The notes below the pieces were generated by a model. The model ran no database searches, had not been told where the DNA came from, and was given only the letters and a program-made list of their open reading frames with translations. DNA of 19,485 nucleotides, taken from contig JBGPLH010000014.1 of NCBI GenBank assembly GCA_041486365.1, forward strand, positions 1 through 19,485, read 5' to 3'. This DNA comes from JBGPLH01 sp041486365 [NCBI: Thermodesulfobacteriota bacterium] (GTDB lineage Bacteria > JAUYMQ01). The position numbers and the translations under genes are program-made. Below are positions 2,570 to 16,986 of the stretch, piece by piece. Position 1 is the first letter of the stretch, and each line of letters begins with the position of its first letter.

Positions 2570-3790
2570 ATGGACTTCGATTTCTCACCCAGGGTGAAGG
2601 ATCTTCGGGCGAAGCTCGGCGCCTTCATGGACGAGTACGTCTATCCGAGCGAGCGCGCCGTTCACGAGTTCGGCGGGAGTCCCGCCTCGCGCTGGACCGT
2701 CCCTCCCGTCGTCGAGGAGCTGAAGGCGAAGGCGCGGGCCGAAGGGCTCTGGAATCTCTTTCTCCCCGAATCGGAACTCGGCGCGGGTCTCACGAACCTG
2801 GAGTACGCGCCCCTGTGCGAGATCATGGGGCGTTCGCTCATCGCACCGGAGATCTTCAACTGCAATTTTCCCGACACGGGAAACATGGAGGTCCTGGTCC
2901 GCTACGGGACGGCCGCGCAGCAGGAGCGCTGGCTCAAGCCCCTCCTTCGCGGCGAGATCCGCTCGGCCTTCGCGATGACGGAGCCGGGGGTGGCGTCGTC
3001 CGACGCGACGAACATCCAGGCGACCATCCGGCGGGAGGGGGATGCGTGCGTCGTGGACGGCGAGAAATGGTACATCTCCGGCGCCGGAGATCCCCGGTGC
3101 AAGGTCATGATCTTCCTTGGGCGATCGAACCCCGATGCGCCGCCGCACGCGCAGCACTCGATGATCCTGATCCCCATGGACGCACCGGGCGTCCGGATCG
3201 GACGTCCGATGCTCGTCCTCGGGTACGACAGCGCGCCCAGCGGGCAGTTCGAGATCACGTTCGAAGGCGTCCGGGTGCCCGCCGACAACCTGATCCTGGG
3301 AGAGGGACGGGGTTTCGAGATCGCGCAGGGGAGGCTCGGTCCCGGCCGCATCCATCACTGCATGCGGGCCATCGGTATGGCCGAGCGGGCGATCGAGCTG
3401 ATGGTCGCCCGGGCGATGAGCCGCACGGCCTTTCACAAGCGGTTGGCCGATCAGGGCATGATCCGGCGTTACGTCGCCGAGTCGCGCATCGAGATCGATC
3501 AGGCACGGCTCCTCACCTTCAAGGCGGCCGACATGATGGACAAGCTCGGGAACAAGGCGGCCCGATCCGAGATCGCCCAGATCAAGGTCGTCGCTCCGAA
3601 CATGGCCATGCGCGTGCTCGATCGGGCCATCCAGATCCACGGCGCGGCCGGGCTCTCGCAGGATCTTCCCCTCGCGGGCTTCTACGCGGCCATGCGGGCG
3701 TTGCGCATGGGCGACGGGCCCGACGAGGTCCATCTCAACGCGATTGCCAAGATGGAGTTCGAGAAGCAGCAGAGACGGCCGGGTGCTTGA
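2570..3790 (+). CDS. Acyl-CoA dehydrogenase, ACAD10/11 and LvaC type
   Basis: This 406-residue flavoprotein has the full acyl-CoA dehydrogenase layout: an all-helical N-terminal domain, the [15 protein letters not shown] flavin and substrate stretch near residues 133-147, [11 protein letters not shown] around 165, then the C-terminal helical domain with [12 protein letters not shown]. Where medium-chain dehydrogenases carry the catalytic Glu (YEG), this protein has GDGPDEVH with Asp at about 382, as in the ACAD10/ACAD11 group. It closes the kinase/DUF6285/dehydrogenase operon, 44 bases after the preceding stop. In the LvaABC pathway the dehydrogenase homologue turns 4-phosphoacyl-CoA into the enoyl-CoA with loss of phosphate, and I infer that reaction here. 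Its last codons (EFEKQ) are echoed in a relic at 4986-5033. A generic straight-chain dehydrogenase is the less likely alternative. Confidence 0.9.
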
Positions 3791-13422: not shown

Positions 13423-15558
13423 TCACGCGGATCGCTTTCGCCGCGTTCGTAAGATCCCCGCGACGGCCATCAGCAATGCCAGCAGGAGCAATCCCTTCGT
13501 CGAGAGCGCCGGGATGTACTTGCCCGAGCCGGTGTTCTGCGTGATCCCCGGATCATTGATGTTGAGGGAGGTTACCGCCGTGTTCGTGGTCACGGTGCTG
13601 CCGGAGGATGTCGCGATGACGCCGATGGCGGCGAGGGTCGAATTGGCGTTGATCGCCGCCGCGATCGCCGCGGCCAGGGCCGCCGAGGTCGCGCCTCCCC
13701 TCGTCACCACCTGAACGGTCACGCCCTGGATCCCCAGATCGACGCTTCCGCCCTTCGTCGTTCCCGCGAACGTGATGCCCGTGAACGTGCCGGCCGGATC
13801 GGGGATCACCACGATGCCGAAGGGGTCGGCGAACTGGCCTCCGACGGAGACGCTCGTCTGCGCCCCTGTCACCGGGTCGATCCGGATCACCGCGCCGTTG
13901 TTTCCCGAGGTCCCCTGGTCGAAGACGAAGATCCGGCCGGTCCCGTCGAGCGCGATGCCGAAGGGAGCCACGAGGCTCCCGCCGGAAGACACCGCCGCCT
14001 GCGCGCCGCTCACCGGATCGAGACGGATCACCTTCGCCGCGACGGCGTCCACCACGAGGACGTGCCCGTCCGTCTCCACCGCGAGACCGAAGGGCGCCCG
14101 GAAGAGTCCGCCGGTGGAGAGCGGCGTCTGCGCCCCGGTCCCCGGATCGACGCGGAGCACGCCGCCGTTTCCGCCGAAGGCGCTCCGATCGGCGACCAGG
14201 ATCGTGCCCAGGGGCTCCACGGCGAGGCCCACGGGCTGGACGAGGTTCCCGCCGGAGGAAACCGTCACGGGAGCACCGGTCGCGGGGTTCACCCGGAGGA
14301 TGCGTCCTCCCGCCGCGTCGGCCACGAGCAGGTTTCCGCTGCCTTCCGCGGCGATCCCGATGGGGCCCGCGAAATTGGCCGGCGCGGAAACGACGGTCTG
14401 CGCGCCCGTCACCGGGTCGACGCGGATGATCCCCCGCGCGCGATCCATCGTGACCGCCTTCCCGGAGGGCTCCAGGGCGATGCCGAAGGGATCGAGGAAG
14501 TTCACGCCGCCGGAGAGGATCGTCTGGGCGCCCGTGTTCGCGTTCACGCGGATCACGCCGCCGACGCCGCCGAAGGCGCCGAAGTCGGTGACGAGGATGC
14601 GGCCGGGGCTGGACACCGGGGGTGGCGGCGACGGGAAGCTCGACGGGAGGACCGCGATGCCGAAGGGATCCGCGAAGCTCCCGCCCGATGCGAGCAGGTA
14701 CTGGGCGCCGCTGGAGGGATCGATCCGGAACACCGCGCCGGTGCCGACTCCCTGATCGAAGACGAGGATCTTTCCCGTGGCGTCGATCGCGACGCCGAAG
14801 GGTGCCACAAGGGAACCGCCGGAGGCGACGCTGGACTGCGCGCCGCTTCCGGGGTCCACGCCGATCACCTTCCCGGCCGTGGCGTCCGCAACGAGGATGA
14901 AGCCGCCGCCGTCCACGGCGATTCCCATGGGGTTCACGAACATCCCGCCGGACGACACCACGGTCTGCGCGCCCGACACCGGGTTGACGCGGATGATCGC
15001 GCCGGCGCCGCCGAAAGCGTCCCGATCGCCGACGAGGATCCCGCCGTTCGGCTCGACGGCGATCGAGACGGGCCGCACGAAACCTCCGCCCGAGGACAGG
15101 ACCGTCTGCGCGCCGTTGCCGGGATCCACGCGGACGACACCGGTCACCCGATCGATGGCGACGATCTTTCCGTCGGCCTCCAGCGCCAGCGCGATGGGGT
15201 CCTGGAGGCTCCCGCCCGAGGAGACGGTCGTGCGGCTCCCCGTCGCGGGATCGATCCTCAGGATCCCGCTCACGCGGTCGGCGACGAGGATCTTGTTGTT
15301 GGAGTCGATGATGAGGCCGAATGGATCGACGAAGTTGCCGCCGGAGGAGACGGTGGACTGGACGCCCGTCACCGGGTCCACGCGGAGGATCGCGCCGCCT
15401 CCGCCGGAGGCGCTGAAGTCGGCGACGACGATGTCCCCCGGCGCGAGCGTGACGGCGTGCGCGGCGGGCGCGAGCGCAATCGCCCAGGCGAAGACCGCCG
15501 CGGCGGCCGCCCCTCTCCGGCATCGGCGGGCATCGTCTCTGATTCCGTCGCGTGACAG
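13423..15558 (-). CDS. Secreted double six-bladed NHL-like propeller with IPTL-CTERM tail
   Basis: The frame has no ATG, GTG or TTG before its signal peptide. The best start is a CTG at 15558, with GGAGGG at 15568-15563 ending four bases upstream, which gives 711 residues. A basic n-region (RDDARRCRRG), a hydrophobic core (AAAAVFAWAIALAPA) and AHA form a clear signal peptide. Twelve repeats of about 45-50 residues follow, each with ILVAD..., RVDPxTGAQT and SSGGxFxxPxGIA. After repeat six lies a proline-rich linker (SSFPSPPPPVSSPG, about residues 303-316). Repeats 1/7, 4/10, 5/11 and 6/12 match best, so the protein looks like two six-bladed propellers made by internal duplication. The C-terminus has the motif IPALSTKG, a hydrophobic helix and RTRRKR, an IPTL-CTERM-like surface-sorting signal. 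Likely a surface-bound binding or lactonase-like protein; no active site is recognised. Confidence 0.8.
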   Translation of the reverse strand: MSRDGIRDDARRCRRGAAAAAVFAWAIALAPAAHAVTLAPGDIVVADFSASGGGGAILRVDPVTGVQSTVSSGGNFVDPFGLIIDSNNKILVADRVSGILRIDPATGSRTTVSSGGSLQDPIALALEADGKIVAIDRVTGVVRVDPGNGAQTVLSSGGGFVRPVSIAVEPNGGILVGDRDAFGGAGAIIRVNPVSGAQTVVSSGGMFVNPMGIAVDGGGFILVADATAGKVIGVDPGSGAQSSVASGGSLVAPFGVAIDATGKILVFDQGVGTGAVFRIDPSSGAQYLLASGGSFADPFGIAVLPSSFPSPPPPVSSPGRILVTDFGAFGGVGGVIRVNANTGAQTILSGGVNFLDPFGIALEPSGKAVTMDRARGIIRVDPVTGAQTVVSAPANFAGPIGIAAEGSGNLLVADAAGGRILRVNPATGAPVTVSSGGNLVQPVGLAVEPLGTILVADRSAFGGNGGVLRVDPGTGAQTPLSTGGLFRAPFGLAVETDGHVLVVDAVAAKVIRLDPVSGAQAAVSSGGSLVAPFGIALDGTGRIFVFDQGTSGNNGAVIRIDPVTGAQTSVSVGGQFADPFGIVVIPDPAGTFTGITFAGTTKGGSVDLGIQGVTVQVVTRGGATSAALAAAIAAAINANSTLAAIGVIATSSGSTVTTNTAVTSLNINDPGITQNTGSGKYIPALSTKGLLLLALLMAVAGILRTRRKRSA

Positions 15559-15585
15559 GGTGCCCTCCGTGAGCGCGCGCGAACC

Positions 15586-16986
15586 CTACTGGATCGAGAT
15601 CCCGTTGATGATTCCGCTCGCCGAGTAGCAGCCCGCGCCGCCCGCCGGGCTGCCGCAGCCGTTCGTGACGCCGAAGTAGCAGGCGTCGCCCGCGTCGGCG
15701 CACAGCTCCTGGATCCAGGTCATCCCGCGGCCTGCCCGGAAGGGCTCGATGATCACCTCGAGGTTGGGGCTGTTCTCGCCGTAGAGGATCCGCGCGAAGG
15801 TCGAGAGCGAGTCGACCGTCATGTCCCATTCGTCAAAGAAAATCTGGGACGCCCGCGAGCCCTCGTTGCAGGTGTTCCCCGAGTAGGACGTGCAGACGCG
15901 CGTGTAGGACGCGCTCCCGATCCGCTCCGTGGCCATGGCCTGCGCGGCGTGGATGATCTGCCGCTCCCAGGCGCCCTCCCGCGTCTGGAAGAAGTAGGGC
16001 ATCGAGGGAAAGATCTTGAATGCGGGGCGCTGCGACTTCACGTAGGCAAGGAGCCCGACGAAGTCGTTGATGTAGTGTGTCGCGTCGATGGCGCTGGCGG
16101 CGACCGGCAGTTCCTTGATCTCCGTGAAGTCCAGGCCGTCCGCGCTGTAGCCGACGTTCGGCTCGTCGATCCGGATCCCCTGGATCGCGCAGGGGGGGCT
16201 GCATTCGCTCCCGTTCAGGAGGCGATCGGCGTCGGCCACCACCATGTTCCGGACATTCTGGGAGGCGAAGTTCACGAAGGCGTGCTCTCCCACCGGGCGG
16301 GAATCGTAGGGCGCTCCCACCGTGAAGCAGCCGGGCCCGCCACTGCCGATCGTGTGCCGCTTGTCCCAGCGCGAGGTGGGCGGGCAGTCGGCCGGGTTCT
16401 GCGCCGTGCAGGCGTCCCAGGAGACGACCTCCGGCGTGTTGCAGGTGCTGTCCGCCGCGAGCGTGCAGGTCCCCGTGCCCCCGCCCGTGCAGCAGGCGAA
16501 GGGCGCGCCGGAGGCGGTGCACTCCGTGTTGTCGTTACAGCAGAGGTAGGGGGAGTTGGCCGCCTTGCAGCAGGAGTTCCCGTTCGCGTGATAGGACCGC
16601 GAGCCCGCCGTGCGGTGATGGTAGAAGTCCGCCTCCGTGAGCGTGCCCGTCTGGGGCCGGAAGGGCGTATTGGACGGGAGCAGATTCCAGGTCGTCGCCA
16701 GGATCCGGTACATCACGAAGAAGTGACCCGCGGGCGGGTTGGCCGCCTTGGCCTTGGCGTAGGCCTGCATGTTGTTCGCGGCGAGCTCGAAGGAGTAGCA
16801 GCCGGGCGAGGCGTTCGTGATCCAGGTGTCGGATCGACCGCCGAGCACGCAGTGAAACTTGGGCGGCGTGGGCGGAAGCGCGAGACTCTGCGCCCGCGCG
16901 GCGCCTCCCGGGATCCCTGACAAGGACGCCCCGAGGACCCCTTCCAGACACACCGCCGCGGCCAGGATGACGCGCCATCGATTCAT
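15586..16986 (-). CDS. Cys-rich secreted protein, possible TIM-barrel hydrolase-like
   Basis: The gene encodes 466 residues from an ATG with GAGG six bases upstream. MNRWRVILAAAVCLEGVLG plus a cleavage site near ARA (about residue 31) is a Sec signal peptide. Residues about 130-190 form a Cys-rich insert with paired cysteines (NSCCKAA, YLCCND, FACCTGGGTGTC), probably a disulphide-bonded module. The rest alternates strands and helices with conserved-looking acidic spots (GIRIDEPNVGY, FKIFPSMPYFF, IFFDEWD, EVIIEPFRAG), which resembles a TIM-barrel glycosidase layout, but no named family is recognised. It ends in TAG, and the propeller gene begins in the same frame 27 bases later. Both have signal peptides, so they are probably separate co-transcribed secreted proteins. 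Acidic residues in those strands could be catalytic; this is inference. Confidence 0.7.
   Translation of the reverse strand: MNRWRVILAAAVCLEGVLGASLSGIPGGAARAQSLALPPTPPKFHCVLGGRSDTWITNASPGCYSFELAANNMQAYAKAKAANPPAGHFFVMYRILATTWNLLPSNTPFRPQTGTLTEADFYHHRTAGSRSYHANGNSCCKAANSPYLCCNDNTECTASGAPFACCTGGGTGTCTLAADSTCNTPEVVSWDACTAQNPADCPPTSRWDKRHTIGSGGPGCFTVGAPYDSRPVGEHAFVNFASQNVRNMVVADADRLLNGSECSPPCAIQGIRIDEPNVGYSADGLDFTEIKELPVAASAIDATHYINDFVGLLAYVKSQRPAFKIFPSMPYFFQTREGAWERQIIHAAQAMATERIGSASYTRVCTSYSGNTCNEGSRASQIFFDEWDMTVDSLSTFARILYGENSPNLEVIIEPFRAGRGMTWIQELCADAGDACYFGVTNGCGSPAGGAGCYSASGIINGISIQ

What the first reader, a model, noticed from the sequence alone, without database searches (positions are those of the whole stretch)
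13423..15558. Two six-bladed propellers from one internal duplication, anchored by an IPTL-type tail
Twelve repeats are countable. A proline-rich linker lies exactly after the sixth, and repeats match best at a distance of six: 1 and 7 share DF-A-GG-G, 4 and 10 share DR-AFGG-G, 5 and 11 share A-KVI, 6 and 12 share VFDQG. This shows duplication of a whole propeller rather than stepwise blade growth. The tail IPALSTKG differs from the usual IPTLSEWG, so it may belong to a variant sorting class.
Basis: partly seen in the sequence, partly recalled or inferred. Interest (0 to 1): 0.6.

Follow-up and report, generated by a model that had tools for sequence, protein, structure and literature searches.

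The report
Surface protein with two propeller rings
This gene encodes a probably exported bacterial surface protein made of two six-bladed propeller rings that arose by an old doubling of one ring, followed by a small domain resembling part of a virus tail sheath and an ordinary membrane sorting tag.

Summary
Minus-strand 15558..13423 encodes a protein with an export signal (by eye), twelve 42-47-residue NHL-type blades, a proline-rich linker exactly after blade six, and an IPTL-CTERM tail. Blades i and i+6 are on average more alike than at any other offset with more than one pair. A relative in a Deltaproteobacteria MAG, seen on two contigs, has the same linker and unit lengths. Trees pair ring 1 with ring 1 and ring 2 with ring 2, so the ring doubled before the two lineages split. 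AlphaFold2 plus PDB comparison gives two separate six-bladed rings. The signal is uneven: 5/11 and 6/12 carry it; 2/8 and 3/9 do not.

A 'variant sorting class' is not supported: the tail passes the curated IPTL-CTERM cut-off, and the relative mixes IPTLS and IPALS tails with one exosortase H over cut-off.

A conserved orphan gene lies directly upstream.

The parts
13423..15558 (-). Whole coding sequence: double-propeller protein, 711 residues, CTG start (inferred) to TGA stop
   Evidence: the first in-frame ATG/GTG/TTG after the upstream stop TAG (15588-15586) is at 15381, inside blade 1
15563..15568 (-). GGAGGG, possible ribosome-binding site 4 bases before the CTG
   Evidence: read from the sequence; role inferred
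15454..15558 (-). Sec-type signal peptide, ending AHA (residues 1-35)
   Evidence: sequence, judged by eye (no signal-peptide program at hand); helix 4-29 in the model
14644..15441 (-). Propeller ring 1, blades 1-6 (residues 40-305)
   Evidence: six HMM units, 24 strands, model 39-309 on the ApoER2 propeller at 2.1 A over 252 residues
14608..14643 (-). Proline-rich linker SSFPSPPPPVSS (residues 306-317)
   Evidence: pLDDT under 50 at 306-318; proline-rich counterpart in the relative on both contigs
13801..14607 (-). Propeller ring 2, blades 7-12 (residues 318-586)
   Evidence: six HMM units, 24 strands, model 316-589 on the nidogen propeller at 2.1 A over 253 residues
13519..13788 (-). Pre-anchor module of the phage tail-sheath / flagellin insertion-domain kind (residues 591-680)
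   Evidence: PHROG 165 tail sheath on 4 of 4 modules; weak PDB profile hits; fold match Z 11.1
13423..13518 (-). IPTL-CTERM sorting tail YIPALSTKG + hydrophobic stretch + RTRRKRSA, with stop codon
   Evidence: TIGR04174 26.1 bits (cut-off 20.5); PF18203 19.0 on the whole protein and 22.2 on the C-terminal part alone (cut-off 20.8)
15586..16986 (-). Upstream gene on the same strand, probably secreted orphan protein; adjacency conserved in the relative
   Evidence: 70% identity over 442 residues to L037:1818-3215, followed there by the propeller gene at 3274; no Pfam hit up to E 10, none in NCBIfam up to E 0.1, none in PDB up to E 1

Best explanation
The gene makes an exported, surface-sorted scaffold protein. 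Shown by sequence, trees and model: twelve NHL-type blades form two six-bladed rings joined by a short proline-rich linker; the second ring came from an old duplication of the whole ring (or fusion of two very close copies), before the window's lineage split from its Deltaproteobacteria relative; a ~90-residue domain akin to those on phage tail sheaths and flagellins follows; an ordinary IPTL-CTERM tail ends the chain. Inferred: Sec exports the chain, the tail parks it in the inner membrane, exosortase H cuts at the IPxLS motif and hands the protein to the cell surface, and the sheath-type module acts as a stalk or packing domain just above the cut. The two rings offer two similar, separately tunable binding faces, so the likeliest role is a two-site binding or display scaffold, probably working with the protein encoded directly upstream. 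Ligand and catalytic activity, if any, are unknown.
For: Unit count and linker; offset-6 statistics; ring and blade trees with AU tests; unit lengths 47-42-(41 to 43)-(47 or 48)-43-(45 or 47) in all four rings of the two species, not seen in the unit borders of the single-ring relatives; two rings in the model, with tandem LRP2, LRP6 and LRP4 propellers as first fold matches; IPTL-CTERM over its curated cut-off; exosortase H at 110.7 bits (cut-off 86) in the relative, the only one over cut-off in 14 genomes searched, with a near miss of 80.7 bits in G011; sheath-type module; conserved upstream neighbour.
Against: The window's own genome is not held, so its exosortase H is not shown. The model has pTM 0.44 and rests on 4 sequences whose three relatives cover mainly ring 2 (invariant columns 300-586), and ring orientation is undetermined. 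The relative is on two contigs that differ by about 13% where they overlap, and the copy on C84 is frameshifted in ring 2, so no single complete ortholog was seen. The four-ring clade is only 67/87 with 14 rings; 96/96 appears after four rows are left out. Blade borders of the relative were partly set by eye. Pairs 2/8 and 3/9 show no i+6 signal. No functional data of any kind.
Confidence: 0.68

Rival explanations
1. Fusion of two neighbouring paralogous single-ring genes rather than an internal duplication. It yields the same two-ring protein, and the copies would have drifted apart before joining.
For: With 14 rings the four-ring clade has only 67/87 support, so separate single-ring ancestors are not firmly excluded; R1 and R2 are only 51% identical, and blade pairs 2/8 and 3/9 show no special likeness.
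Against: Both rings share the same unit-length pattern, blades 6/12 and 1/7 form clades across species, and the reduced ring tree unites all four at 96/96.
Confidence: 0.25
2. One large twelve-bladed ring, closed by the first and last strand.
For: Propellers of up to twelve blades exist (PMC6805158, passages).
Against: Proline-rich linker between blades 6 and 7 in both species; six units in 13 of 17 non-orthologous relatives; model with 24 strands on each side of the linker, each side superposing on a six-bladed propeller.
Confidence: 0.04
3. It is a periplasmic enzyme of the ScyD/ScyE or SMP-30/gluconolactonase kind, with two catalytic rings.
For: NF033206 (ScyD/ScyE) 76.7 bits, just under its cut-off of 80, and one relative, L012, passes it at 91.4; Pfam SGL 52.7 bits, over its cut-off of 26.3; ScyE is needed for scytonemin production (PMC12188702 and PMC4870267, passages).
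Against: Score under the ScyE cut-off; no scytonemin gene named among the 12 other window frames scanned with Pfam (two of them with NCBIfam too); metal or active-site residues were not examined; ScyE's own role is described as not established in PMC4870267 and as monomer dimerisation in PMC12188702.
Confidence: 0.12
4. A variant sorting class: IPALSTKG is recognised by a different protease from IPTLSEWG.
Against: TIGR04174 26.1 bits over a 20.5 cut-off; the relative has IPTLS and IPALS tails and one exosortase H over cut-off. The relative also has a second EpsH-type exosortase (L035, 225.8 bits to PF09721) that I did not classify, so it is not fully excluded.
Confidence: 0.05

Closest known systems
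ScyD/ScyE family (NCBIfam NF033206) and single-ring NHL propellers with PEP-CTERM tails, such as the one in L010
   Same: NHL-type propellers with the same blade motif; L010 has six units and a PEP-CTERM tail at 28.2 bits, cut-off 16
   Different: One ring (L010), PEP-CTERM not IPTL-CTERM; this protein scores 76.7 bits, under the ScyE cut-off of 80
PknD sensor domain, TRIM-NHL domains and designed Pizza proteins
   Same: Closest solved structures by sequence: PknD 1rwi E 1.5e-16, TRIM2 7b96 E 6.5e-12, Pizza3 3ww8 E 2.3e-9
   Different: Single rings or parts of rings, other contexts, no sorting tail named in those entries
IPTL-CTERM / exosortase H sorting system (TIGR04174, TIGR04177)
   Same: Tail over the curated cut-off; exosortase H in the relative's genome
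   Different: IPALS in place of IPTLS; a sheath-type module directly before the tail
Tandem YWTD propellers of LRP6, LRP4 and megalin
   Same: Two six-bladed rings in series; 500 residues over LRP6 E1E2 (rmsd 20 A, so ring orientation differs) and about 2 A per ring
   Different: 13-20% identity in the rows; proline-rich linker here; bacterial. EGF modules between the LRP rings are recalled
Phage tail-sheath additional domain / flagellin insertion domain
   Same: Module matches 8kee sheath at Z 11.1, 2.1 A over 84 residues, 29% identity, and flagellin 4nx9 at Z 8.7, 2.1 A over 81; PHROG 165 in 4 of 4 modules
   Different: No sheath core; stands alone before a sorting tail on unrelated proteins

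Membership tests
NHL-repeat propeller (PF01436) | NHL repeats over Pfam's gathering score | tested here: met
   64.8 bits against 20; twelve units
NHL-repeat propeller (PF01436) | six-bladed ring | tested here: met
   model: two rings, 2.1 A to solved six-bladed propellers over 252 and 253 residues; predicted, not solved
IPTL-CTERM protein (TIGR04174) | C-terminal motif, hydrophobic stretch and basic end over the curated cut-off | tested here: met
   26.1 bits against 20.5, residues 682-708 of 711; PF18203 19.0 on the whole protein (under 20.8), 22.2 on the C-terminal part
IPTL-CTERM protein (TIGR04174) | exosortase H encoded in the same genome | not testable with these tools
   own genome not held; present in the relative at 110.7 bits
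ScyD/ScyE family (NF033206) | score over the curated cut-off of 80 bits | tested here: not met
   76.7 bits
SMP-30/gluconolactonase-like (PF08450) | score over Pfam's gathering score | tested here: met
   52.7 bits against 26.3
SMP-30/gluconolactonase-like (PF08450) | metal-binding active-site residues | not tested
   not examined
Phage tail-sheath additional domain (part of PHROG 165) | sequence match to that part of the profile | tested here: met
   E 1.2e-4, 5.5e-7, 1.3e-5 and 4.3e-5 for the four modules, profile positions 105-183 of 493; PHROGs gives no curated cut-off
Phage tail-sheath protein | conserved sheath core around the additional domain | tested here: not met
   the module alone was scanned and matches only that part of PHROG 165; the rest of the chain is propellers and tail
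Flagellin hook IN motif (PF07196) | score over Pfam's gathering score of 22.7 | tested here: not met
   listed for one of four modules (L011), 8.4 bits, E 3.2

The most novel reading that the evidence does not exclude
A domain of the phage tail-sheath/flagellin kind has been put to use as a general stalk or packing unit between varied secreted proteins (double propeller, metallopeptidase-like protein, multicopper oxidase) and an exosortase H sorting tail, so that sorted proteins can line up or pack on the cell surface as sheath and flagellin subunits do.
Probability: 0.3. Interest if true: 0.6.

Novelty: new variant of a known kind. Interest (0 to 1): 0.42.

Why it matters
It is a clear case of propeller evolution by doubling a finished ring rather than adding blades, placed before a lineage split, and it joins three things I saw joined in no other protein examined here except its ortholog: a two-ring NHL propeller, an exosortase H-type tail and a tail-sheath-type domain. 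'IPTL-CTERM' occurs in only one paper of the open-licence library searched, so substrates of this system look little studied there. The shared pre-anchor module gives a handle for asking what happens to such proteins after cleavage.

Tried and rejected
Tried without result: P0001 against genome contigs and viral contigs, the half-alignment and the blade pattern against viral contigs, P0001 against phages. Plasmid matches (12 records, all under 60% identity, none covering 80% of the query) are mostly annotated as propeller, NHL or PknD proteins where annotated at all. The upstream gene found nothing in plasmids, viral contigs, PDB or Pfam up to E 10. The sheath-type module found nothing by tblastn in phages (L011's module) or plasmids (the window's), and no viral model at E 0.001 or better (best 0.0028). 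Searches by order and phylum around G001 returned only G001, so the spread of the double ring is unknown. A stop-codon readthrough fusing the upstream gene to the propeller (same frame in the window) was considered and dropped: in the relative the two genes lie in different frames, with 58 bases between. Three-fold periodicity inside a ring: opposite blades score 99.7 against 97.4 for other within-ring pairs, so no case. One alignment (A2) put the relatives, even the ring-2 fragment L011, on ring 1 and was not used for folding. Alignment A5 of single rings was made and not folded. The module model rests on one of five runs (pLDDT 87.3; the others 48-53), so I lean on the sequence evidence as well. 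The TIGR04174 search at E 1 also rang, under the cut-off, in 8 of 14 control genomes, so only matches over the cut-off count.

Rows dropped before a count: the ring tree used 14 of 21 rings (two of the window, L011 R2, C84 R1 and 10 single-ring relatives; L001, L002, L006, L007, L013, L017 and L018 were left out as cut, irregular or distant); the reduced tree also left out L004, L005, L014 and L015. The 18 relatives are those of 20 pattern loci with a tblastn match; L003 and L016 had none. L016's genome was not held and not searched.

Full report
What is there. The finding lies on the minus strand. The open frame runs from a CTG at 15558 to a TGA ending at 13423, 711 residues. The first in-frame ATG, GTG or TTG after the upstream gene's stop (TAG, 15588-15586) is at 15381, already inside blade 1. 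The CTG has GGAGGG four bases before it and opens a good export signal by eye (LSRDGIRDD...AAHA), so I take CTG as the start by inference. The relative's copy has an ATG.

Repeats. A unit HMM built from the twelve units counts exactly twelve, touching end to end except for residues 306-317, SSFPSPPPPVSS, after the sixth. Offset 6 has the highest mean similarity of the offsets with more than one pair: 121.8 against 88.0-97.6 for offsets 1-5 and 87.5-103.2 for 7-10; 84 of 100000 label shuffles and 4 of 720 orders of the second half reach it. Without the loop-length columns the signal stays but weakens: 117.5, 370 of 100000, 12 of 720, best of offsets 1-6 in 1955 of 2000 bootstraps. It is uneven: 5/11 and 6/12 are 64-67% identical and resolved in the tree; 2/8 (40%) and 3/9 (43-45%) are not above other offsets; only 6 of 12 units have their i+6 or i-6 mate as best partner.

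Relatives. The window's genome is not held. A DNA pattern for the blade motif found 20 loci in genome contigs, 18 of them with a propeller relative by tblastn. One, L011 (MAG Deltaproteobacteria bacterium C24_metabat.bin.90), is an ortholog at 55-56% identity covering the end of blade 6, the linker, ring 2, the C-terminal module and an IPTLS tail. Its genome (G001) has another contig, C84, with the N-terminal part: signal, ring 1, linker and the start of ring 2. The two contigs overlap at about 87% identity and are therefore two diverged copies, from paralogs or mixed strains; the C84 copy lacks about 125 bases in ring 2 and is frameshifted. Among the 17 other relatives, 13 have six units, three have five and one, cut by its locus, has four: six is the rule.

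Age and mode of the doubling. With both species' blades, blades 6/12 of both form one clade (96/94) and blades 1/7 another (87/82); most other positions stay unresolved. Cross-ring blades at the same position score 110.5 against 93.9 for others; 3 of 720 orders, the true one included, reach this. Unit lengths run 47-42-42-47-43-45 and 47-42-43-47-43-47 in the window, 47-42-41-48-43-47 and 47-42-43-47-43-47 in the relative (the relative's borders partly set by eye), a pattern I do not see in the unit borders of the single-ring relatives. In the ring tree, window R1 pairs with relative R1 (81/90) and window R2 with relative R2 (96/96); all four form a clade at 67/87 with 14 rings, and at 96/96 with the 10 left when four rows are dropped; window R1 and R2 as sisters is rejected (p-AU 0.0095 and 0.0088, tested after the tree was seen). 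So the ring was doubled before the two lineages split. Fusion of two very close paralogs cannot be told from tandem duplication here.

Structure. AlphaFold2 on an alignment of four sequences gave mean pLDDT 73.9, pTM 0.44, 24 strands before and 24 after the linker, whose pLDDT is under 50. Model residues 39-309 superpose on the ApoER2 propeller (252 residues, 2.1 A), 316-589 on the nidogen propeller (253 residues, 2.1 A), and the pair matches LRP6 E1E2 over 500 residues at 20 A, i.e. two rings in another mutual orientation.

Tail and protease. TIGR04174 scores 26.1 bits against 20.5; PF18203 is under its cut-off on the whole protein (19.0 against 20.8) and over it on the C-terminal part (22.2). 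In G001 the genome search lists 8 places at E up to 1, of which two are over the cut-off: an IPALS tail (C520, 23.0) and the IPTLS one (C234, 22.7); the IPALS tail on C335 scores 12.9. hmmscan of the whole proteins scores the first two at 19.5 and 19.0, just under. G001 has one exosortase H over its cut-off (110.7 and 110.8 bits against 86), the only one among 14 genomes searched, with 80.7 bits in G011 as the nearest miss, and a second EpsH-type exosortase that I did not classify. Nothing calls for a variant sorting class. Cleavage by exosortases follows the model of PMC1569441 (passages), itself a proposal there.

The module nobody asked about. Residues 591-680 (window 13788-13519) form a separate module. 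In G001 the same module precedes the tails of a metallopeptidase-like protein (HEYGHNTGLNH; Pfam hits all under their cut-offs) and of a multicopper oxidase (Cu-oxidase_2 82.1 bits). Pfam has no match over a cut-off; PHROG 165, tail sheath, matches all four modules (E 1.2e-4 to 5.5e-7, profile positions 105-183 of 493). The two best PDB chains for the four-row profile are phage tail sheaths, weakly (E 0.014 and 0.015, next a lumazine protein at 0.097). The best AlphaFold2 run (pLDDT 87.3; the other four 48-53) matches a cyanophage sheath at Z 11.1, 2.1 A over 84 residues, and Pseudomonas flagellin at Z 8.7. A search of 19 genomes with the profile hit, beyond G001 (3 places), only a FlgL protein in one other genome (E 6.1e-4). 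Sheath additional domains lie away from the tube and are thought to aid stability or adsorption (PMC9230969, passages). A stalk or packing role here is inference.

Neighbour. The gene directly upstream (16986..15586) encodes a probably secreted protein (signal by eye) of unknown family, 70% identical over 442 residues in the relative, where it also lies directly before the propeller gene. It has no Pfam, NCBIfam or PDB match at the limits used. That the two are co-transcribed and act together is inference.

Function. Most likely a surface-displayed two-site binding scaffold. The nearest named family, ScyD/ScyE, is missed by 3.3 bits; ScyE is periplasmic and needed for scytonemin, by dimerising its monomer according to PMC12188702 and with a role not yet established according to PMC4870267 (passages).

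Verdict. Observation confirmed, duplication and two rings supported, variant sorting class not supported. Ordinary parts in an uncommon combination; the sheath-type pre-anchor module is the most interesting piece.

Noticed in passing
window 13519-13788 (-); L023:1585-1845 (-); L024:484-738 (+): Module resembling a phage tail-sheath/flagellin domain sits directly before IPTL/IPAL tails on a double propeller, a metallopeptidase-like protein and a multicopper oxidase.
   Followed up: yes
window 15586-16986 (-): Cysteine-rich, probably secreted orphan protein, conserved at 70% directly upstream of the double propeller in the relative; no Pfam, NCBIfam or PDB match.
   Followed up: partly
window 15556-15588 (-): The propeller gene seems to start at CTG with a GGAGGG before it, and shares the reading frame of the upstream gene, from which one TAG stop parts it.
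   Followed up: partly
L037 (G001 contig C84) 3274-4515: The relative's C84 copy of the propeller lacks about 125 bases, roughly one blade, in ring 2 and is frameshifted; deletion between repeats or assembly error.
   Followed up: partly
L036:1-943 (-): The relative's exosortase H gene overlaps a small hydrophobic frame downstream (158 residues, cut by the contig end, no NCBIfam match), perhaps a partner of exosortase H.
   Followed up: no
L010:5877-6902 (-): Single-ring propeller with six units and a PEP-CTERM tail in an Alphaproteobacteria MAG, a one-ring counterpart with another sorting tail.
   Followed up: partly
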